A DNA stretch of 64,000 nucleotides, taken from NCBI RefSeq assembly GCF_010500815.1, contig NZ_JAAAMG010000001.1, positions 310,001 through 374,000 of the forward strand, in the 5' to 3' direction. Each line of letters starts with the position of its first letter. Position 1 is the first letter of the stretch. Position numbers and translations under genes: made by a program. Origin of the DNA: Jiella pacifica. Lineage in GTDB: Bacteria > Pseudomonadota > Alphaproteobacteria > Rhizobiales > Rhizobiaceae. This document shows, one piece after another, positions 51,716-60,537 of this stretch. The notes under the pieces are model-generated. The model ran no database searches and was not told the DNA's origin. It saw only the letters and a list, made by a program, of their open reading frames with translations.

Positions 51716-52462
51716 TCAGCTTTCTTTCGGCCGGTCCAGGCTGAGCGGATCCTTCGAAGCGCCGATCTGCTGCGTCGAACTCGTGCCCATGATCTGGGCG
51801 AGCACGTCGTCGGCCGACTGCGACTGGCCGCCGATGCCCGCCGCCAGCAGCTGGCGGTCGAGATCGGACCCCGATTCCAGCGCCGCGAGCTCTTCGCCCG
51901 CCTCCAGACGGCCCTGGGTCATCTCCTGCTTCTTGCGGATGCGTTCCAGAGAATCCATCGCGCTGCCGAGCTTGGAATTGACGCCCGAATGGGTGGTGGC
52001 GATGGCCGACTGCGCCTTGATCAGCGACTCGTTGGCCTTCACGTTCTCCACCTCGCGCCGCATCTGCTGGATGCGCTGCTCGGTGTCCTGAACCGCCTTG
52101 ATCATCTGCTGCTGGCGCTGCGACAGGCGCTCAAGCTCGGCCTCGTCGCGAGCCGCCTCGGTGCGGGTCTTGGAGATCCGGTCGGCAAGCCCGCGGGCGA
52201 GATCCTCGCGGCCGGCCTGGAACGCGGCCCGGGCGCTCTCGGTGTCCTTGCGCTCCTTGTCGCGCGCCTCGTGGACGCGCCGCTGCAGCGACTTGTTGGA
52301 GGCCATGATGCCGGCGAGATCGGAGCGCGCGCGCTTGAGCGCGTTCTCGGCGTCGCGGATCTCCTGGTCGAGAATGCGCAGCGCCTGCGTGTCGGCGACG
52401 CCTTCCGCCGCCTCGTTGACGCCGCCCTTGACGGCGGTGAACAGCTTGTTCCAGACACTCAT
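51716..52462 (-). CDS. PspA/IM30-family protein (YjfJ type)
   Basis: 248-residue peripheral membrane protein, almost wholly alpha-helical and rich in Glu, Arg and Ala: a long coiled-coil from about residue 25 to 190 with RDAENALKRARSDLAG and ALAQRQQQMIKAVQDTE-like heptads. The N-terminus MSVWNKLFTAVKGG is the usual membrane-sensing amphipathic segment. PspA proteins bind stressed membranes and hold the proton-motive force. The ATG overlaps the DUF2170 stop (ATGA) so the two are coupled. The neighbours identify this as the YjfJ subgroup rather than the pspABC operon form. It is followed by a terminator. Confidence 0.9.
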   Translation of the reverse strand: MSVWNKLFTAVKGGVNEAAEGVADTQALRILDQEIRDAENALKRARSDLAGIMASNKSLQRRVHEARDKERKDTESARAAFQAGREDLARGLADRISKTRTEAARDEAELERLSQRQQQMIKAVQDTEQRIQQMRREVENVKANESLIKAQSAIATTHSGVNSKLGSAMDSLERIRKKQEMTQGRLEAGEELAALESGSDLDRQLLAAGIGGQSQSADDVLAQIMGTSSTQQIGASKDPLSLDRPKES

Positions 52463-52890
52463 GCGGCGAATTCCCCGTTCTTCCATTCCTCGATCATGTT
52501 CGCGGCATCGACCGCGTTGGTCGCGAGGACGGCCACTTCCTCGACCATGGATTCGGCGGTGGAGTTGGCCGACAAGGAGCCGAACAACTCGTAATATTCC
52601 TTGCCGTCGATGGTCACGATGCCGAAGGTCGAGAGCGGCAGGAGCTTGTGGGTCGACAGGACCATCCGCTCGAAGGCCTCGCGGCGCGGGATCGTATCGG
52701 CCGGCGCCAGCATCACGCTGGCCAGGACCTGATCGCCGCCGGCCGCCACGAGCACGTCGAGATCGCCCTTCTCCTTGAGCGTCACGCGGATCACGTCGCC
52801 GGTCTCGACGACCGTCACGTCGACGTCGCCGAGCGCCTCCGGGTCGGAGGCGAAGAGCTCCGTCAGGCTGGCAAGATTCCACTTTTTCAC
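52459..52890 (-). CDS. DUF2170 protein (YjfI type), partner of PspA
   Basis: 143-residue cytoplasmic protein of the DUF2170/YjfI family. Visible features are WNLASLTELFASDPEALG at the N-terminus and the conserved middle SHKLLPLSTFGIVTIDGKEYYELFGSLS-type segment (about residues 80-106), where the sequence reads STHKLLPLSTFGIV and EYYELFGSLSA. A GTG at 52890 is preferred because GAGGG lies 7 bases upstream; a TTG seven codons earlier is the alternative. The protein is always found with PspA homologues such as E. coli YjfJ. Its function is unknown. It is the first gene of the minus-strand arm of the stress locus. Confidence 0.82.
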   Translation of the reverse strand: MKKWNLASLTELFASDPEALGDVDVTVVETGDVIRVTLKEKGDLDVLVAAGGDQVLASVMLAPADTIPRREAFERMVLSTHKLLPLSTFGIVTIDGKEYYELFGSLSANSTAESMVEEVAVLATNAVDAANMIEEWKNGEFAA

Positions 52891-53039
52891 TGGGTATCCC
52901 TCAGTTGCCAAGGTTCGTTGCCGGGTTCTACATCACCGACGTGGCACTGTCCAAACCGTTTTCCGCCCTCCGTGGCCGATATTGACCTTGGGGAATATCC
53001 GGCCGCATAACCGCCAAAACAGCCCGAACCGGAACCCGC

Positions 53040-54098
53040 GTGCCGTTATTTTCGCAATATATGCGTCGATTTTACGTCGCCCTCGCCGAACTCACCTGGG
53101 GCGCGATCGCGGCGCTCTCATTCGGCCATCTGGCGGTCAGCTGGCTCCTGCTGGCGATCGTCGGCGAAAGCGACTTCGTGTCCCGTCCGGTCGATTTCGT
53201 CTACTATTACATCGTCACGGCGACCACCGTCGGCTACGGTGACCTGTCGCCGCAGACCGGCGCCGGCCGGCTCGTGGCGGCGTTCTTCGTCCTGCCCGGC
53301 GCGATCGCCATCTTCACCGCAGTGCTCGGCAAGCTGCTCGCGGCGGTGAGCAACACCTGGAGGGGCCGGATGAAGGGGCTGGGGAATTTCAGCGACCGCG
53401 CCGATCACGACGTCGTCATGGGCTGGCAGGAAGCAACGACGCGGCGCCTGCTCGGGCTGATCCATCGGGAGCGTCGGGATGGCGAGGCGGTGACGGTCCT
53501 GATCGCCAAGGACCTCGAACAAAATCCGGCACCCGAGAATGTCGATTATGTGAGGGTGGACCGGCTCGCCGATCCCGCCGGCCTCGAACGCGCGGGCGCT
53601 GTCAATGCACGCTCGATCATCGTGCGCGGGGTCAGCGACGACGAGACGCTGGCGGCTGCCCTCGTCGCCTCCGCCACATGCCCGAGGGCACACGTCGTCG
53701 CCTATTTCGATTTCGAATCGACCGCGAGCATTCTGCGTCAGCAGAATTCGCGCATCGAGTCGGTGACGTCGCTCTCCTCCGAGTTGATGGTCCGCGCCGC
53801 CCGCGATCCGGGCACCTCCGTCGTCGCCAATCTCCTCTTGTCGGCCGGCAAGGACGACACCGCCTTCTCCGTCAGGGTGCCCGAGGGCGCGGCGGCGTTT
53901 CCCTACGAGGCGGCGCTTCGGCTCATGCGCCGACGGCACGCGGTCACCCTCGTCGGCATGAACCGCCATGGAAATGTCGATCTCAATTGCCACGAAGGGA
54001 CCGAGATCCAATCCGGCGATGTCCTCTTCTACATCGCCGACCACAGGCTCGATCCCGGCGCCATCGCCTGGGACGCGTTCGCAAAGGAGAGCGCATGA
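53040..54098 (+). CDS. Potassium channel with RCK domain
   Basis: 352-residue ion channel. Two helices (about residues 18-41 and 76-100) flank the pore with the K+ filter TTVGYGD at residues 62-68. The cytoplasmic part has a Rossmann-like RCK/TrkA-N domain (about residues 120-250) and a TrkA-C-like end (about 270-345), where ligands gate the pore. GTG at 53040 is used; an ATG at 53061 in the same frame is possible. It is the first gene of the plus-strand arm, divergent from DUF2170-pspA, and overlaps the next gene (ATGA). A K+ channel in this locus suggests control of membrane potential under envelope stress. Confidence 0.9.
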   Translation: MPLFSQYMRRFYVALAELTWGAIAALSFGHLAVSWLLLAIVGESDFVSRPVDFVYYYIVTATTVGYGDLSPQTGAGRLVAAFFVLPGAIAIFTAVLGKLLAAVSNTWRGRMKGLGNFSDRADHDVVMGWQEATTRRLLGLIHRERRDGEAVTVLIAKDLEQNPAPENVDYVRVDRLADPAGLERAGAVNARSIIVRGVSDDETLAAALVASATCPRAHVVAYFDFESTASILRQQNSRIESVTSLSSELMVRAARDPGTSVVANLLLSAGKDDTAFSVRVPEGAAAFPYEAALRLMRRRHAVTLVGMNRHGNVDLNCHEGTEIQSGDVLFYIADHRLDPGAIAWDAFAKESA

Positions 54099-54757
54099 TC
54101 TTCTCGCTGTTCGGCAGCAAGAACAAGGCCGATGATCTTCCCAAGGAGCGCGGACCTCTGGGTGTTGCAATCGGCGGCGCGATCGAGATCGACACGCTGG
54201 CGCTCGAGGCCGACGCGGCCGGCAGCAACCCCGGCATGGAGTTGCCGGCGGGCGGCAATTTCATCGTCGTCGCCTATGGCGAGGCGCGGCTCGACGGCGA
54301 AACGATCCTGTCACGCTACTACGACGAGGACGACCGGCTGCTCCAGACGCTGTCGGCGACTGGTAAGCCCGGCGACGCGATTCAGGACGTCAGCCTCTAC
54401 GCCTCCTGGGACAGCGTCGTGCCTGCGGGCCGGGCGGAGTGGAACAGGTGGACGGGCTCATCGGGGCTGATTGGCCAGCCGAGCTACGACGCCGATGGCA
54501 TTCTGTTCGATCGCTATTGGGGCGAGGGGGCGGGGCGTGCCGATCTCGTCGAGTTCGTCGAGGACGTCGACGACGGAACCAGCGTCCGCCAGATCCATCA
54601 GACCTGCATGCTCTATTCGCGGCCGCTCGGCCGGGCCCAGGAGATGCTGCTGATCAACATCGAGCGCGACATCGCACAGCGGGCGAGCCGCGAGGGCGGA
54701 TCGGTCGAATTCCTGCTTGGCTATGGCCTGTCGCCGGGAGACGTGCGACGGGTCTGA
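54095..54757 (+). CDS. DUF2491 protein (YjfK type)
   Basis: 220-residue cytoplasmic protein. Blocks typical of the family are GLEVGGAIEIDTL-like (here LGVAIGGAIEIDTLALE), GNFIVVAYGEARLDG and FDRYWGEGAGRADLVEFVED. No catalytic motif is visible. The start overlaps the channel stop (ATGA), so channel and DUF2491 are translated together. E. coli YjfK is encoded beside YjfJ and YjfL, the same set as here. Its role in the locus is unknown; its linkage to PspA and the channel suggests a regulatory or membrane-associated partner. Confidence 0.85.
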   Translation: MIFSLFGSKNKADDLPKERGPLGVAIGGAIEIDTLALEADAAGSNPGMELPAGGNFIVVAYGEARLDGETILSRYYDEDDRLLQTLSATGKPGDAIQDVSLYASWDSVVPAGRAEWNRWTGSSGLIGQPSYDADGILFDRYWGEGAGRADLVEFVEDVDDGTSVRQIHQTCMLYSRPLGRAQEMLLINIERDIAQRASREGGSVEFLLGYGLSPGDVRRV

Positions 54758-54796
54758 TACCAGCGGCCCGGGAGAATGGCTCCCGGGCCGCTGGTA
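54758..54796 (+). terminator. Very strong 17-bp hairpin after DUF2491
   Basis: A perfect 17-bp inverted repeat starts at the base after the stop codon, with a 5-base loop. The strength and position mark it as a terminator, attenuator or mRNA-stabilising end. No T-run follows, and DUF350 starts 166 bases on, so partial read-through is likely. A second small stem CCGGTC/GACCGG follows at 54835-54849. Confidence 0.7.
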
Positions 54797-54962
54797 GGAA
54801 GCCCGCGCGGCGATCGAGCGGTAACCCCTTGGCGCCGGTCGAAGACCGGAGCCGGCGGTATGAGGAACCGCCGCAGTGACGGCACGAGGCGGCGTGGACC
54901 ATGAGCGCCGCGGGCGAAACGACGATGCGGGCGAGATATCCCGCGCAACGAGAGGAATTTGA

Positions 54963-55364
54963 ATGTTCGGTTATGCTGCGGGCCTGCCGGCCTTTCTCGC
55001 CTATTTCGTTCTCGGGCTGGTGCTCTACGGCCTGTTCAGCTGGGTCTACACGACGCTGACCCCGCAGAAGGAAATCACCCTGATCCGGGCCGGCAACACT
55101 TCCGCCGTCGTCGCCTTCATGGGCGCGATTCTCGGATTCTCGTTGCCGCTCGCCTCGGCCGCCGCCAACTCGGTCTCGATCGTCGACTTCATCATCTGGT
55201 CGGTCATCGGTCTCCTCGCCCAGATTCTCGCCTTCTTCATCGCCTCGCGGACGATGACCGGCCTGCACCAACGCATCACCGACGGTGAGATCGCGGCAGG
55301 GATCTGGACCGGCGGCATCGCGCTGTCCGTCGGCATCCTCAATGCCGCCTGCATGACCTACTGA
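54963..55364 (+). CDS. DUF350 membrane protein (YjfL type)
   Basis: 133-residue inner-membrane protein with four helices arranged as two DUF350 repeats (about residues 9-31, 46-68, 73-94 and 108-130). The second and fourth contain small Gly/Ala-rich stretches such as AFMGAILGFSLPLASAAA. GAGAGGAATTTGA precedes the ATG. DUF350 proteins are always found next to glutathionylspermidine synthase-like and PspA genes; the biochemical activity is unknown. The gene is 11 bases before DUF1190 and continues the plus-strand arm of the stress locus. Confidence 0.88.
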   Translation: MFGYAAGLPAFLAYFVLGLVLYGLFSWVYTTLTPQKEITLIRAGNTSAVVAFMGAILGFSLPLASAAANSVSIVDFIIWSVIGLLAQILAFFIASRTMTGLHQRITDGEIAAGIWTGGIALSVGILNAACMTY

Positions 55365-55375
55365 GGAGGCCTGGA

Positions 55376-55957
55376 ATGCGCAGACGCTTCACCAGAAGAA
55401 CACCGCCGATTCTCACGCTCGGCACGATCGCCGCCACGGGCATGGTCCTTTACGGCTGCGGTGACGAGGCGCCCCAGGACGTCGCCTTCTCAACGCCGCA
55501 GCAATGCGCCGATGCCGGCGTCGACGCGCAGATCTGCGAGGCCGAATATCAGCAGGCCCTGCAGAAGCATCTGACCGACGCCCCGCATTACGCCAGCCTG
55601 CAGGAATGCGAGGCGGCGATCGGCGAGGGCAAGTGCTTTCAGGCCGGTGGTGCGAGCGGTCAGAACTCCGCGGGCCAGACCAGCGGCTCGGGGTCCGGCT
55701 TCTTCGTGCCGTTCATGACCGGCTACCTGATCTCCTCGGCCTTGTCGAACCTGTCGAGCTACGGCGCCTATCGCGACTATCGCTACTCCTCCGGCTACTC
55801 GTCGACGCCGATCTACCGCGACCGGGCCGGCACGGCGCTGACCAGCACCGTCGAGAACGGCAAGGCGGTGAGCCGGCCGGTCAACGTCAACACCCGCACC
55901 GTGTCGCGGTCGGGCTTCGGCGGCCGCTCCTCCTCGCGCGGCTTCTTCGGTGGATAA
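55376..55957 (+). CDS. DUF1190 lipoprotein-like protein (YgiB/YjfM type)
   Basis: 193-residue exported protein. After a basic N-terminus (MRRRFTRR) and a helix to residue 28 lies YGCGDEAPQ with a possible lipobox Cys. The DUF1190 core has six or so cysteines in PQQCADAG, AQICEAEYQQA, QECEAAIGEGKCF. The C-terminal half is Gly/Ser/Tyr/Arg-rich low-complexity (SSYGAYRDYRYSSGYSS) ending GGRSSSRGFFGG. E. coli YgiB and YjfM have the same layout and sit beside YgiC/YjfC. RBS GAGGAGGCC. It is followed 72 bases later by the ATP-grasp gene. Confidence 0.87.
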   Translation: MRRRFTRRTPPILTLGTIAATGMVLYGCGDEAPQDVAFSTPQQCADAGVDAQICEAEYQQALQKHLTDAPHYASLQECEAAIGEGKCFQAGGASGQNSAGQTSGSGSGFFVPFMTGYLISSALSNLSSYGAYRDYRYSSGYSSTPIYRDRAGTALTSTVENGKAVSRPVNVNTRTVSRSGFGGRSSSRGFFGG

Positions 55958-56029
55958 GCCCTTGGCCATGCCGATGGCGGCGAAGGCCGGCGACGCGGTG
56001 ATCCGCGTTGCTGCCAAGGACCGGTCGCG

Positions 56030-57187
56030 ATGAAGCGGATCGACGTTCCCGAGCGCGAGAACTGGCGCGAGGCGGCCGAAAGCGTCGGCTTCGGCTTCCA
56101 CGAAATGTATGGCGAGCCCTATTGGATCGATGGCGCCGCCTACGTCTTTTCACTCGCCGAAGTCGAGGAGGCGATCGAGGCGCCGTCCCAGGACCTGCAC
56201 GACATGTGCATGGATCTCGTCGGCGACGTCGTGCGCGACGAACAGGCGATGGAGAAGCTGCAGGTTCCCGAGGCGATGCGCGATCTCGTCGCCTCGTCCT
56301 GGCATCGCGGCGACAAGCAGCTCTACGGTCGCTTCGACCTTGCCTATGACGGCACCGGCCCGGCGAAACTCCTGGAATACAACGCCGATACGCCGACCTC
56401 GATCTTCGAGGCGGCCTTTTTCCAGTACAACTGGCTGACCGACAACGTCGCCCGCGGCGCCCTGCCGGAGGACGCCGACCAGTACAATTCCATCCAGGAG
56501 GCGTTGGTCGAGGCGTTCGGAGCGTTTTCGAAGGAGCCGATCTTCCACTTCGCCGCCTGGACCGAAAGCGACGAGGATCGCGGCACCGCGGCCTATCTGA
56601 TGGACTGCGCCGTCCAGGCCGGCCACCGCACCAGCCTCCTCGACATCCGCGACGTCGGAGTGGACGACCAGGGCCGCTTCACCGACACCGAAGACCGGGT
56701 GATCGACCTCCTCTTCAAGCTCTACCCTTGGGAGGACATGCTGCGCGAGCCCTTCGCGAAGTATCTCTCGACTGCCGGTGCCACCATCGTCGAGCCGGCG
56801 TGGAAGACCATCCTGTCCAACAAGGGCATCCTGCCGTTGCTGTGGGACCGCCATGCTGGCCACCCGAACCTGCTTCCCGCCTGGTTCGACGACGTCCCCC
56901 AGGCGAAGACCCTGAAGGACGCCGTGCGCAAGCCGCTATTTTCGCGCGAAGGCGAGAATGTCGAGGTGTTGAAGGAAGGCGAGCGCGTCGAGATCACCGA
57001 GGGCTCCTACGGCAGCGAAGGCTTCATCGTCCAGGCCCTCACGTCGCTGTTCGAGAAGGACGGCGCCTATGCCGTGCTCGGCTCCTGGATCGTCGGCGAC
57101 CGGGCCTGCGGCCTCGGCATGCGCGAGGACCGCTCGCCGATCACCCGCAACCTCTCCCGCTTCGTGCCGCACATCATATTGGAGTAG
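56030..57187 (+). CDS. Glutathionylspermidine synthase-like ATP-grasp enzyme (YjfC/YgiC type)
   Basis: 385-residue enzyme with the synthetase domain of glutathionylspermidine synthase but without the amidase half of E. coli Gss. ATP-grasp signatures include LLEYNADTPTSIFEAAFFQ, PWEDMLREPF and KTILSNKGILPLLW, with a closing RITRNLSRFVPH-like segment (here SPITRNLSRFVPHII). ATG at 56030 with AAGGACCGG nearby. It lies in the same orientation as the DUF350 and DUF1190 genes. It is not proven to make glutathionylspermidine; YgiC/YjfC homologues form a separate group with an unknown amide-ligase substrate. Confidence 0.9.
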   Translation: MKRIDVPERENWREAAESVGFGFHEMYGEPYWIDGAAYVFSLAEVEEAIEAPSQDLHDMCMDLVGDVVRDEQAMEKLQVPEAMRDLVASSWHRGDKQLYGRFDLAYDGTGPAKLLEYNADTPTSIFEAAFFQYNWLTDNVARGALPEDADQYNSIQEALVEAFGAFSKEPIFHFAAWTESDEDRGTAAYLMDCAVQAGHRTSLLDIRDVGVDDQGRFTDTEDRVIDLLFKLYPWEDMLREPFAKYLSTAGATIVEPAWKTILSNKGILPLLWDRHAGHPNLLPAWFDDVPQAKTLKDAVRKPLFSREGENVEVLKEGERVEITEGSYGSEGFIVQALTSLFEKDGAYAVLGSWIVGDRACGLGMREDRSPITRNLSRFVPHIILE

Positions 57188-57651: not shown

Positions 57652-60537
57652 ATGACCGTAACGCACCGCTCCCGCCGCCTCGCGCTTCTTGCCGGCGTGG
57701 CTCTCCTTGCCGCATCGCCCGCCGATGCCGGCCAGCTTCTGGCCCAGGCCGCGACAGACTGCCGGGAGGCGAAGGACCACTTCGAGATCGCCCGGCAGAT
57801 CGACACGCCGGGGGCCTATCAGGCCCATATCGATGCTTTCGGTGCCTGCCCCTATGCCAGCTTCGCCCGCATCCTGCAGGGCCAGAGCGAGGAGAAGGCC
57901 GGCCGATCGACCGAAGGCGGGGCAAGCGCCTCGCCGGCCGCACCGGCAGGGGAAAGCCCGGCGCCGCAGTTCTCGCAGCAACCGGCCCCCATGGCACCGG
58001 ACGGCGCCGAGACGCCGCCTCCGGCGGCGGCCGAGGCTCCTTTGCCGGACGCGCCGATGCAGGCCGATACGGCGCCGCAGCCGGTGCCGCAGGACGGCGA
58101 AACGGTGGCGCCGAGCGTCGCCCAGGACCCGTTCTCGGGGGCTGGCGGCAACCCGACCACCGCCGGCGGCAGCGATGCCGATCCCCAGCCGGTTCCGATC
58201 CCCGCACCCGACGCCGACCTTGCCGCGCCGGCGGCGCCGACGGGCCCGGCCAATGCCGGCGATGTCGCCGCGCCTCAGCTCCCCGCCGTTACCCCCCAAG
58301 CGCCCACCGACGAGGGCAAGCTCCTCGCCGATACGATGGTCGACCGGCTGAACGCATTGCAGGGCGGCGCGAGCCAGAGCGGGCCACGGTTCCACTACGA
58401 TTCCGCTGTTCTCGACCAGGGTGATCTCTTCGTCACCAATCTCCGGCTGACCAAGGACGACGGCCAGCCGAACTGGAGCGGCTTCGTGGCGCCCTCGACG
58501 GTCGTCCTGAAGCCGAAGATCGAGGCGGACGGGACCTTCTCCGCCAATTCGATCTTCATGACCAAGGCGAGCGTCCGGGCGACGGAACGCAACGGTCCGA
58601 ACGACCGGGTGGCGACGATCGCCTCGATCTCGATCCTCGATCCGCGGCTCTCCGCCGTCGGCGCGACGCCCGCCAGCGACAGCCTCGGCCCGGTCGACCT
58701 GCGCGGCATCGACATCCGCTCGGTCATCGGCTTCGATCCGACCGGCGAGCTTCTCAAGATCGCCGCGATCCAGCTGACCACCAACGGCGTCTCCGACGGC
58801 CTGCCGCAGTCGGCGACGTTCAGCGTCAAGAATCTCGCCTTCACGCCGCAGCAGATGGCGACGATCACCGAAAGCAGTGTCGCCGACTTCGAGGAGCTCG
58901 GGCCCGACTTCTTCGACTTCACCCTGACCACCATGATGCAACGCGACACGGCGGCGCAGAATCTCAAATTGACGCAGGTCCTAGAAGTCGGCCAGGAGGG
59001 GAGCCTGACCGTCTCGGCCGCACTCGCGAACTTCTCGCCCGCCGACATCCGCACCCTGCTCGGTGCGAAGAACCCGGCAGCGCTGGTCGGCGTCGGGGCT
59101 GGCCTCGGGGAAGCCGAGGTGAATTTCGTCAACACGTCGCTGGTCGACAAGGTTCTCGCAATCGTCGCGAAGGCCCAGAACATCGATCCGCCGCTGTTCA
59201 GGGCGGCGATACCGACCGCCGCGCGCGACGCGATCCTCGGCGCCACCGGCAATGCGACGCTCGCCGAGAACGCCGCCGATGCCTTGCGCGCATTTCTGAG
59301 CGACCCGCGCTCGCTGCGGGTCGCGGTCAAACCGGGGCAACCTGCGCCGCTCGTCGGTACCGCCTTCGCGCTTGCCGGCGCGGCGGATCCGCTGCAGCAG
59401 ATGGCGGTGCTGTCGCCGACGGTCTCGGTGAATGGCGGCGAAGCCGTGCCGCTGCTCGGCACGGCGCCGGCCGCGCCTTCGGCCGAACCCGTTCCGCCCG
59501 CAGCGCAAGGTGGGACGGAAGATCTCGCACCGCCCGCGGAAGACCGGCCGGACGCGCAAGCGCCGATCGACCCGCTGCCGCTGGTGCCGTCGCCCGGCGG
59601 CGTCCCTCTGGCGCCCCCGCCCGCTTTGGCAACGCCGGGTGACGCGCAGACGCCCCGCCCGGGGGCTGCGACGGCGAGCGTCCTTGCCGAATGCGACCGG
59701 TTCGCCGCCGATTCCGACGATCCCACCAAGCCGGCGGAAGTCGCCGGGGTGAAGGCGCCGGCCGACATCGACGTGACGAAGGCCGTGCCGGCCTGCGAGG
59801 CGGCCCATCGTCTGGCTCCAGGCGATGCCCGCATGACATTCCAGCTCGGCCGCTCCTATCAGGCGGCGGGGCGCGACGAGGATGCGGCAAGTCTCTACCG
59901 CGAGGCGGCGGAGGCCGGCCAGTCCGTCGCCCAATACGAACTGGCCTTGGCTTTTTACGACGGCCGCGGGGTTGCGCAGGACCCGCGCCAGGCGGTCGAA
60001 TGGCTGGAGAAATCCTCGAGCCAGGGCAACGGCTTTGCGAAGTACTTCCTCGGCATCGAGAAGGTGAACGGCACATACGTTCCGCAGGACTATCCCGGCG
60101 CCTACGTGATGTTCGAGGAAGCGGCCGCCTTCGGCGTGCCCGAGGCGCTCGTCGAACTCGGCAAGATGGCCTATAGCGGCCAGGGTGTTGCCGAAGACTA
60201 CGCCAAGGCCTTCGAGTTCTACCGCGAAGCGGCGGAAAAGGACGTGCCGGGCGGGCATTTCTACGTCGGCTTCATGGATGCCTTCGGCATCGGCGCGCCG
60301 GGCGCGACGCCGCTCGATGCGGCAAAGAGCATGATGGCCGGGCTCGCCCAGGGCTATGCCGATGCCGAGGAACTGATCGTGACCGAAGGCGGCAAGATCT
60401 TCGCGACGCCGATCCGCCAGGCGATCCAGGACTATCTGCGGGCCGAGGGGGTCTATCGCGGCCGCAGCGACGGCATTTTCGGACCGGCGACGATCGAGGC
60501 GATCAATGCTTGGCGAGCGGCGAGCCCGCGCGGCTGA
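57652..60537 (+). CDS. Large secreted protein with Sel1 repeats and a peptidoglycan-binding end
   Basis: 961-residue exported protein. A signal peptide spans about residues 1-27 (ASPADAG). Residues 30-85 hold three Cys around TDCREAKDHFE and AFGACPYASFARILQG; residues 85-220 are a Pro/Ala linker. Residues 235-600 form a domain I do not recognise, opening with FHYDSAVLDQGDLFVTNLRL. A second Pro/Ala linker (600-675) leads to three or so Sel1-like repeats (about 705-850: AVPACEAAHRLAPGDAR, AQYELALAFYDGRGVAQDP, LVELGKMAYSGQGVAEDY). The C-terminus (about 915-955: YLRAEGVYRGRSDGIFGPAT) matches the PG_binding_1 type. It is likely periplasmic and wall-associated. Confidence 0.8.
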   Translation: MTVTHRSRRLALLAGVALLAASPADAGQLLAQAATDCREAKDHFEIARQIDTPGAYQAHIDAFGACPYASFARILQGQSEEKAGRSTEGGASASPAAPAGESPAPQFSQQPAPMAPDGAETPPPAAAEAPLPDAPMQADTAPQPVPQDGETVAPSVAQDPFSGAGGNPTTAGGSDADPQPVPIPAPDADLAAPAAPTGPANAGDVAAPQLPAVTPQAPTDEGKLLADTMVDRLNALQGGASQSGPRFHYDSAVLDQGDLFVTNLRLTKDDGQPNWSGFVAPSTVVLKPKIEADGTFSANSIFMTKASVRATERNGPNDRVATIASISILDPRLSAVGATPASDSLGPVDLRGIDIRSVIGFDPTGELLKIAAIQLTTNGVSDGLPQSATFSVKNLAFTPQQMATITESSVADFEELGPDFFDFTLTTMMQRDTAAQNLKLTQVLEVGQEGSLTVSAALANFSPADIRTLLGAKNPAALVGVGAGLGEAEVNFVNTSLVDKVLAIVAKAQNIDPPLFRAAIPTAARDAILGATGNATLAENAADALRAFLSDPRSLRVAVKPGQPAPLVGTAFALAGAADPLQQMAVLSPTVSVNGGEAVPLLGTAPAAPSAEPVPPAAQGGTEDLAPPAEDRPDAQAPIDPLPLVPSPGGVPLAPPPALATPGDAQTPRPGAATASVLAECDRFAADSDDPTKPAEVAGVKAPADIDVTKAVPACEAAHRLAPGDARMTFQLGRSYQAAGRDEDAASLYREAAEAGQSVAQYELALAFYDGRGVAQDPRQAVEWLEKSSSQGNGFAKYFLGIEKVNGTYVPQDYPGAYVMFEEAAAFGVPEALVELGKMAYSGQGVAEDYAKAFEFYREAAEKDVPGGHFYVGFMDAFGIGAPGATPLDAAKSMMAGLAQGYADAEELIVTEGGKIFATPIRQAIQDYLRAEGVYRGRSDGIFGPATIEAINAWRAASPRG

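What the first reader, a model, noticed from the sequence alone, without database searches (positions are those of the whole stretch)
51716..57187. Divergent PspA-DUF2170 and K+ channel-DUF2491-DUF350-DUF1190-ATP-grasp stress locus
Seven genes on two divergent arms make up the protein set of the E. coli yjfI-J-K-L-M-C locus, with a two-helix RCK potassium channel at the head of the plus arm. Several genes are coupled by ATGA overlaps. PspA senses membrane damage, the channel could set potential, and the ATP-grasp enzyme may modify a peptide or polyamine. The function of the whole, and of DUF2170, DUF2491, DUF350 and DUF1190, is not established to my knowledge. The set has been noted in comparative studies of PspA partners, but the channel coupling is worth testing.
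Basis: partly seen in the sequence, partly recalled or inferred. Interest (0 to 1): 0.75.

Follow-up and report, generated by a model that had tools for sequence, protein, structure and literature searches.

The report
Stress locus with taggable envelope protein
This is a known seven-gene bacterial envelope-stress locus, and comparing many genomes suggests that one of its membrane-anchored proteins carries a conserved tail, usually ending in two glycines, to which the locus's own enzyme may attach the polyamine spermidine.

Summary
In detail: all seven genes lie at the stated coordinates in an Aurantimonadaceae-type genome. The set, potassium channel included, is already in print as a PspA-associated operon (Ravi et al. 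2024, PMC11237479). The channel is frequent but optional: 49 of 67 DUF2491 loci, 16 of 22 clusters. The ATP-grasp protein belongs with E. coli YgiC/YjfC, published as peptide-spermidine ligases (title only seen). Comparison adds this: the DUF1190 protein in the ligase's locus ends in a disordered tail with an RGGFG-like motif and, in 138 of 164 cases, a terminal Gly-Gly. Where Pfam finds no full DUF1190, a small membrane-anchored protein with that tail lies within 250 bp of the stand-alone ligase in 22 of 25 loci and further off in 2. None adjoins 12 amidase-fused glutathionylspermidine synthetases, and 7 DUF1190 copies set apart lack it. I propose that DUF1190's C-terminus is the acceptor for polyamine attachment. 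This is inferred, not shown, and the main biochemical paper could not be read.

The parts
51716..52462 (-). PspA/IM30 family protein (YjfJ-like), 248 aa
   Evidence: Pfam PF04012 2.9e-44
52459..52911 (-). DUF2170 protein (YjfI/BacA-like, CesT/Tir-type fold per the literature); ATGA overlap with pspA at 52459-52462; start codon uncertain (TTG at 52911 or an in-frame GTG further in)
   Evidence: Pfam PF09938 1.4e-39; sequence
52912..53039 (.). intergenic region between the divergent arms; short blocks conserved in 6 Aurantimonadaceae-type sequences
   Evidence: alignment
53040..54098 (+). two-helix potassium channel with RCK-type cytosolic part (MthK-like), 352 aa
   Evidence: Ion_trans_2 2.2e-13; MthK 1.5e-13 over 54-331
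53226..53243 (+). potassium selectivity filter TVGYGD
   Evidence: sequence; T[VIL]G[YF]GD in 48 of 51 aligned channel ORFs, the other 3 being fragments that do not cover it
54095..54757 (+). DUF2491 protein (YjfK-like), beta-rich, fold unassigned
   Evidence: PF10679 1.4e-48; AF2 pLDDT 88.7; no PDB match at E<=0.001
54758..54796 (+). perfect 17-bp hairpin with 5-nt loop in the DUF2491-DUF350 gap; not in the 10 relatives checked
54963..55364 (+). DUF350 membrane protein (YjfL-like)
   Evidence: PF03994 1e-37
55376..55957 (+). DUF1190 envelope protein (YjfM/YgiB-like): N-terminal hydrophobic segment with Cys28, four further Cys, flexible C-terminal tail
   Evidence: PF06693 2.8e-29; alignment A2; AF2
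55907..55954 (+). conserved C-terminal tail of DUF1190 from R178 to the terminal Gly192-Gly193: proposed acceptor end for the ligase
56030..57187 (+). stand-alone GSP_synth ATP-grasp ligase of the YgiC/YjfC type, 385 aa
   Evidence: PF03738 2.9e-146; 50%/47% identity to E. coli YgiC/YjfC; PDB 7uk8/7uk6 1.4e-121/3.9e-111

Best explanation
The locus is an Aurantimonadaceae member of the PspA-CesT/Tir-ATP-grasp envelope-stress operons. Its biochemical core is a substrate-enzyme pair. DUF1190 is made in the cytosol with an N-terminal membrane anchor (often a lipobox) and an unstructured Ser/Gly/Arg-rich tail carrying RGGFG and a small C-terminal end, mostly Gly-Gly. The adjacent YgiC/YjfC-type ATP-grasp enzyme recognises the tail (RGGFG probably as docking motif), activates the C-terminal carboxylate with ATP and joins it to spermidine or a similar amine, as glutathionylspermidine synthetase does with the Gly of glutathione. 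Export then presents a polycationic tip on a flexible tether at the membrane surface, which could pin or neutralise anionic lipid surfaces under stress. PspA with its DUF2170 partner supports the inner membrane; DUF350, DUF2491 and, in many lineages, the RCK potassium channel are accessory and may set ion balance. Shown here: the gene set, tail conservation, its tie to the ligase, disorder in the model. Published by title: ligase activity of the E. coli relatives. Inferred: that this tail is the acceptor, that the amine is spermidine, timing before export, and the role of the charge.
For: (1) Of 164 DUF1190 proteins with the ligase in the locus, 138 end in GG, 163 end in two of G/S/T/A and 164 have a GFG-like motif in the last 60 residues. 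Among 67 clusters at 60% identity 49 end in GG, where shuffling the last 20 residues gives a mean of 5.2 and a maximum of 15 in 20,000 trials; Gly frequency in them is 0.73 at -1, 0.87 at -2 and 0.07 at -3, although the stretch after GFG varies from 8 to 53 residues. (2) No GG ends among the ORFs of the six other families in the same sources. (3) Where Pfam finds no full DUF1190 in the genome, a protein with the same tail lies within 250 bp of the stand-alone ligase in 22 of 25 loci and elsewhere in the fetched stretch in 2 more; 5 of these 24 (L229, L231, L234, L236, L257) match my own DUF1190 profile weakly, the others not at its E cut-off. (4) None of 12 amidase-fused ligases (the glutathione type) has such a neighbour; 3 of 693 ORFs pass the relaxed tail rule there, all on the opposite strand and more than 1 kb away. 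(5) The 7 DUF1190 copies set aside (6 in sources without the ligase, plus L134's second, partial copy) fail the tail rule. (6) 61 of 63 genomes with DUF1190 also have GSP_synth, about 14 expected. (7) In 47 aligned proteins R178, G180, F181, G182 are invariant and G192, G193 at least 90% conserved. (8) AF2: residues 158-186 below pLDDT 50, residues 31-90 about 72-89. (9) Full-length homology to YgiC/YjfC. (10) Joining a protein's -GG end to spermidine exists in nature: SUMO Pmt3 (PMC12270671).
Against: The terminal residue is not strictly Gly: GS, SS, AT, GT, IS, AS occur (26 of 164), and divergent partners end in AS (L225), GE (L226) or HS (L228). One stand-alone but distant ligase (L235) has no tail neighbour, and a second ligase copy in G419 (L258) has none beside it. 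L134 carries a second, partial DUF1190 0.4 kb from a ligase that lacks the tail. The mature tail should lie outside the cytosol whereas the ligase needs ATP, so modification must precede export. No ligase column co-varies with the terminal residue after correction (best p 9.3e-5 in 1204 tests). Loss of the tail without the ligase is confounded with divergence, since most of those copies are partial. The loci are related by descent, and clustering at 60% only partly removes that. I could not read the biochemical paper on YgiC/YjfC, so its tested peptides, and whether it already names this acceptor, are unknown to me.
Confidence: 0.58

Rival explanations
1. The RGGFG...GG tail is a docking or structural element (for the ligase, DUF350, TolC or peptidoglycan) and the ligase's true acceptor is a small soluble peptide; tail and ligase are coupled through complex formation, not by catalysis on the C-terminus.
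For: The invariant tail residues are R-x-G-F-G, not the last two; the terminal residue varies among G, S, T and more rarely others; the ligase is homologous to glutathione-using enzymes.
Against: Gly enrichment is sharply confined to positions -1 and -2 despite a spacer of 8-53 residues, which is expected of a free C-terminus and not of an internal docking motif.
Confidence: 0.22
2. The first reader's module: the potassium channel and PspA are the core, sensing membrane damage and resetting the membrane potential; the ligase is accessory.
For: Channel in 49 of 67 DUF2491 sources and 16 of 22 clusters; selectivity filter intact in 48 of 51 channel ORFs, the rest being fragments; ATGA overlap with DUF2491 in the window.
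Against: DUF350, DUF1190 and the ligase are in 67 of 67 of those sources while the channel is in 49; 97 of 164 sources with the DUF1190-ligase pair have no DUF2491. Both counts lean on sampling through DUF1190 or the ligase.
Confidence: 0.1
3. The tail is merely a Gly/Ser-rich surface sequence inherited with the operon, without a role in the enzyme's chemistry.
For: Tail composition is Ser/Gly/Arg-rich and low in complexity.
Against: The tail persists when the rest of the protein has diverged beyond recognition, is absent beside the amidase-fused ligases, and its GG is at the end far above shuffled expectation.
Confidence: 0.08

Closest known systems
PspA-CesT/Tir-ATP-grasp operon, 'third group' of Ravi et al. 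2024 (PMC11237479; section 19 and passages read)
   Same: Same seven families: CesT/Tir-like DUF2170, PspA, ATP-grasp ligase, potassium channel, DUF350, DUF1190, DUF2491.
   Different: Here the set lies on two divergent arms. The text I read calls DUF1190 a metal-chelating lipoprotein and does not mention the tail.
E. coli yjfIJKLMC and ygiBC
   Same: Six of seven families; the ligase is 47-50% identical; YjfM and YgiB also end in GG.
   Different: No channel in K-12 yjf; single direction; ygiBC is only the DUF1190-ligase pair, downstream of tolC.
Glutathionylspermidine synthetase/amidase and trypanothione synthetase
   Same: Same ATP-grasp family; joins a Gly carboxylate to spermidine (established knowledge, recalled).
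   Different: Bifunctional enzymes that use free glutathione (recalled); 12 of 12 long, amidase-type bacterial loci have no tail-bearing neighbour.
SUMO/ubiquitin-spermidine conjugation in eukaryotes (PMC12270671; abstract and passages read)
   Same: A protein's C-terminal -GG joined to spermidine with ATP.
   Different: E1/E2 chemistry on a beta-grasp protein; here a one-step ATP-grasp ligase and a disordered tail are proposed.

Membership tests
PspA-CesT/Tir-ATP-grasp operon (Ravi et al. third group) | DUF2170-PspA dyad with GSP_synth-type ATP-grasp, potassium channel, DUF350, DUF1190 and DUF2491 together | tested here: met
   all seven over cut-off with one model each
PspA-CesT/Tir-ATP-grasp operon (Ravi et al. 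third group) | one co-directional run of genes | tested here: not met
   two divergent arms in the window; 38 of the 65 sources with DUF2170 are divergent, others such as E. coli are co-directional; I take this as an arrangement, not a family-defining trait
YgiC/YjfC peptide-spermidine ligase | stand-alone GSP_synth protein with full-length homology to YgiC/YjfC | tested here: met
   50% and 47% identity; PDB 7uk8/7uk6
YgiC/YjfC peptide-spermidine ligase | joins spermidine to peptides | not testable with these tools
   known to me from the title of Pederick et al. 2023 as cited in PMC10948618, PMC12568646 and PMC12270671; paper not held
Bifunctional glutathionylspermidine synthetase/amidase | N-terminal amidase domain | tested here: not met
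   385 aa; Pfam finds GSP_synth only
DUF1190 (YgiB/YjfM) | Pfam PF06693 over cut-off | tested here: met
   103 bits against 22
DUF1190 (YgiB/YjfM) | lipobox Cys after an N-terminal hydrophobic stretch | tested here: inconclusive
   VLYG-C in the window; C28 is invariant in the 47 aligned proteins and a simple pattern finds it in 128 of 164, but some Rhizobiales-order copies (L127, L129, L133) have no Cys there
MthK-type RCK potassium channel | two-helix pore with TVGYGD filter and RCK domain | tested here: met
   the TrkA_N model alone stays below its cut-off
CesT/Tir-like chaperone (DUF2170) | family profile and chaperone activity | tested here: inconclusive
   PF09938 met, NCBIfam BacA model 84.4 bits, below its cut-off of 300; fold from literature; activity not tested

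The most novel reading that the evidence does not exclude
Bacteria carry a genetically encoded C-terminal polyamine-tagging system: a membrane-anchored protein with a ubiquitin-like -GG end on a disordered tail is the dedicated substrate of an ATP-grasp peptide-spermidine ligase, giving a tethered polycation at the envelope. It forms the common core of ygiBC, yjfMC and the PspA/potassium-channel operons; in the channel-bearing versions the tethered polyamine may act on the channel, since polyamines are known channel blockers (recalled).
Probability: 0.5. Interest if true: 0.82.

Novelty: new member of a known kind. Interest (0 to 1): 0.6.

Why it matters
The gene set is known, but its chemistry is open in what I could read. 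If the DUF1190 tail is the acceptor, it names a candidate natural substrate for YgiC/YjfC, gives DUF1190 a role, and reveals a bacterial counterpart of the SUMO-spermidine conjugates reported in 2025 (PMC12270671). It can be tested in E. coli K-12 with two genes and mass spectrometry. Cut with trypsin, the C-terminal peptides of YgiB and YjfM would be only 4-5 residues (SMGG, GHWGG), so routine proteomics could easily have missed an adduct.

Tried and rejected
Channel as the defining core: rejected because it is absent from 18 of 67 DUF2491 sources while DUF350, DUF1190 and the ligase are in all 67. That sampling is biased, since loci were drawn through DUF1190 or the ligase. A separate DUF2491 scan found 29 of 398 genomes; compared by eye, four of them (G042, G272, G299, G422) have neither a DUF1190 nor a GSP_synth hit. 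These four were not fetched.

DUF2491 fold: the best PDB match was YceI-like at E 0.015, too weak to use; the second aligner's library was not available. DUF1190 core: no usable PDB match. Further tails in the own genome: one search with the last 43 residues found only this gene at E<=10; a short low-complexity query can miss others. Co-variation between ligase columns and terminal residue: nothing significant after correction. Shared promoter of the two arms: short conserved blocks but no common operator recognised. A PPK2 family search of the own genome was made only to learn the genome handle (no hit). A first filter pattern missed 22 of 51 channel ORFs because it was written too narrowly; the alignment settled it.

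Tail rules: the strict rule missed 3 of the first 20 loci (L224, L226, L228), found by eye and with a relaxed rule; the relaxed rule in turn missed L229, L233 and L236, which the strict one found, and of its 22 hits 6 are unrelated ORFs. The 22 of 25 is the union of both with positions checked by eye; in L254 a small ORF lies between tail protein and ligase, and in L233 the tail protein is downstream of the ligase. With the strict rule 145 of 164 DUF1190 proteins pass, and 15 of 20,368 other ORFs do; one of these 15 overlaps the DUF1190 gene of L101 in another frame. Rows left out of both groups: a sub-cut-off hit in G365, a fragment with a stop in G242, the ligases that adjoin a fetched DUF1190 (counted among the 164), and the second copy in G419 (L258, told as a result against). 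One of 47 DUF1190 representatives (L198) was not passed to alignment A2.
Full report
What is there. The window lies in a 5.77-Mb genome in 74 contigs. Its ligase is 85-89% identical to those of Aurantimonas and Jiella, so the host is an Aurantimonadaceae-type bacterium. All seven genes of the finding are present. The minus arm is DUF2170 then PspA, with an ATGA overlap at 52459-52462. The plus arm is the potassium channel, DUF2491 (ATGA overlap at 54095-54098), DUF350, DUF1190 and the GSP_synth ATP-grasp protein, with gaps of 205, 11 and 72 bp between the last four. E. coli K-12 yjfIJKLMC has the other six families in one run and no channel.

What is known. Ravi et al. 2024 (PMC11237479; [quoted passage not shown] 2023), which I know only as cited in held papers; the paper itself is not held. 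RefSeq names both proteins accordingly, and crystal structures exist. E. coli yjfIJKL is strongly up-regulated in heat-evolved strains, which the authors attribute to a promoter deletion (PMC12492005, passages). P. aeruginosa BacA, a DUF2170 protein, has a solved type-III-chaperone-like structure (PMC10948618, passages). YgiB is listed as increased in tolA-mutant outer-membrane vesicles (PMC7973035, one passage).

Sampling. I collected 87 stretches around DUF1190 hits from two genome searches: class, 21 of 142 genomes, and phylum, 63 of 398; regions were fetched, the window's own hit left out. I added 80 stretches around ligase hits from named genomes (the best 80 of at least 249 relatives), the window, and two E. 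coli stretches: 170 sources in all. Profiles built from these sequences marked the seven families. All 170 sources contain DUF1190 and 164 contain the ligase. All 80 ligase-anchored sources contain DUF1190.

Channel. In 67 sources with DUF2491, DUF350, DUF1190 and the ligase are present in all 67, PspA in 66, DUF2170 in 65 and the channel in 49; by 60% clusters of DUF2491 the channel occurs in at least one member of 16 of 22. It keeps a T[VIL]G[YF]GD filter in 48 of 51 aligned channel ORFs, the other three being fragments that do not cover it. The channel is thus a frequent but optional member. The sample was drawn through DUF1190 or the ligase, so DUF2491 loci lacking both would be missed; a separate DUF2491 scan found 29 of 398 genomes, four of them without hits.

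The tail. In the 164 DUF1190 proteins that share a locus with the ligase, 138 end in Gly-Gly, 163 end in two residues from G/S/T/A, and all 164 have a GFG-like motif in the last 60 residues. Among 67 clusters, 49 end in GG, while shuffling each last-20 stretch gives a mean of 5.2 and at most 15 in 20,000 trials. Gly frequency in these clusters is 0.73 at -1, 0.87 at -2 and 0.07 at -3, and the spacer after GFG ranges from 8 to 53 residues. None of the ORFs of the six other families ends in GG (all). In an alignment of the window's protein with 46 representatives of the ligase-anchored sources, R178, G180, F181 and G182 are invariant, with C28, C44, C54, C78, C87, A61, P70 and P112; T175, G192 and G193 are among the columns conserved at 90% or more. 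The AlphaFold2 model has pLDDT of about 72-89 for residues 31-90 and below 50 for residues 158-186.

Tests of the link with the ligase. (a) The 6 DUF1190-like proteins in sources without the ligase fail the tail rule; so does a second, partial DUF1190 in L134 that sits 0.4 kb from a ligase. One of the six (L136, genome G219) matches the profile over most of its length and its genome has no GSP_synth hit. (b) I fetched all 25 stand-alone ligase loci from genomes without a full DUF1190 hit (24 genomes with none, plus G317, whose three partial hits lie elsewhere). A protein with the same tail lies within 250 bp of the ligase in 22, elsewhere in the fetched stretch in 2 (L238 at 2.3 kb, L255 at 5.2 kb), and is missing in 1 (L235, a distant ligase). 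Of these 24, 18 end in GG, 3 in GS, and one each in AS, GE and HS. Five of them match my own DUF1190 profile weakly (L229, L231, L234, L236, L257). (c) Of the 12 long, amidase-type GSP_synth proteins (620-646 aa as called; type judged from length and family), none has such a neighbour; 3 of 693 ORFs there pass the relaxed rule, all on the opposite strand and more than 1 kb away. (d) 61 of 63 genomes with DUF1190 also carry GSP_synth; about 14 would be expected from the frequencies. (e) A second ligase copy in G419 has no tail neighbour (L258); that genome's tail-bearing DUF1190 adjoins its other copy (L111).

Reading. The simplest account is that the tail's C-terminus is the acceptor on which the YgiC/YjfC-type ligase works. 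Its relatives join the Gly carboxylate of glutathione to spermidine (recalled), and a -GG end joined to spermidine is documented for SUMO, and in vitro for ubiquitin, in eukaryotes (PMC12270671, abstract and passages). The RGGFG motif would be the recognition element. The amine, the chemistry on this protein and the physiological role remain inference. The strongest objections are that about one in six ends is not Gly and that the mature tail should lie outside the cytosol.

Is it in print? In the passages I read of eight papers (PMC11237479, PMC12492005, PMC10948618, PMC12568646, PMC12506659, PMC7973035, PMC12270671, PMC13055217) the tail is not mentioned. Searches by family and gene names showed no title or abstract about it; two searches listed only 40 of 83 and 20 of 76 papers. 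The paper most likely to discuss the acceptor could not be read, so I do not claim priority.

Other parts. DUF2491 is confidently predicted as a beta-rich fold (pLDDT 88.7) without a reliable PDB match (best E 0.015, YceI). The intergenic region shows short blocks conserved in six Aurantimonadaceae-type sequences, which does not settle whether the arms are co-regulated.

Noticed in passing
window 54758-54796: A perfect 17-bp inverted repeat with a 5-nt loop (about -39.5 kcal/mol as RNA) sits between DUF2491 and DUF350 with no T-run after it; the equivalent gap of 10 relatives has no stem above 6 bp, and the arm occurs nowhere else in the genome without mismatch. Possibly an mRNA-stability or attenuation element.
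   Followed up: partly
L112:9690-10760 (minus strand): The channel gene is split between two open frames in this relative, a possible channel loss in progress: the other 6 members of its DUF2491 cluster have no channel.
   Followed up: no
L134:7800-8663: This open frame from a genome of the window's order carries an RAGFGETG motif upstream of the membrane segment as well as the usual tail; it may be a second recognition site or an artefact of the frame start.
   Followed up: no
L137, L138, L139 (genome G317): Three scattered DUF1190-like proteins without the tail in one genome, whose ligase instead adjoins a 119-aa tail protein (L224).
   Followed up: partly
L101, L102, L105, L107, L108: In these loci the ligase lies upstream of DUF1190, the reverse of the usual order.
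   Followed up: no
window 57652-60537: The downstream gene encodes a 961-aa protein with Sel1 repeats and a weak peptidoglycan-binding match; unrelated to the module as far as seen.
   Followed up: no
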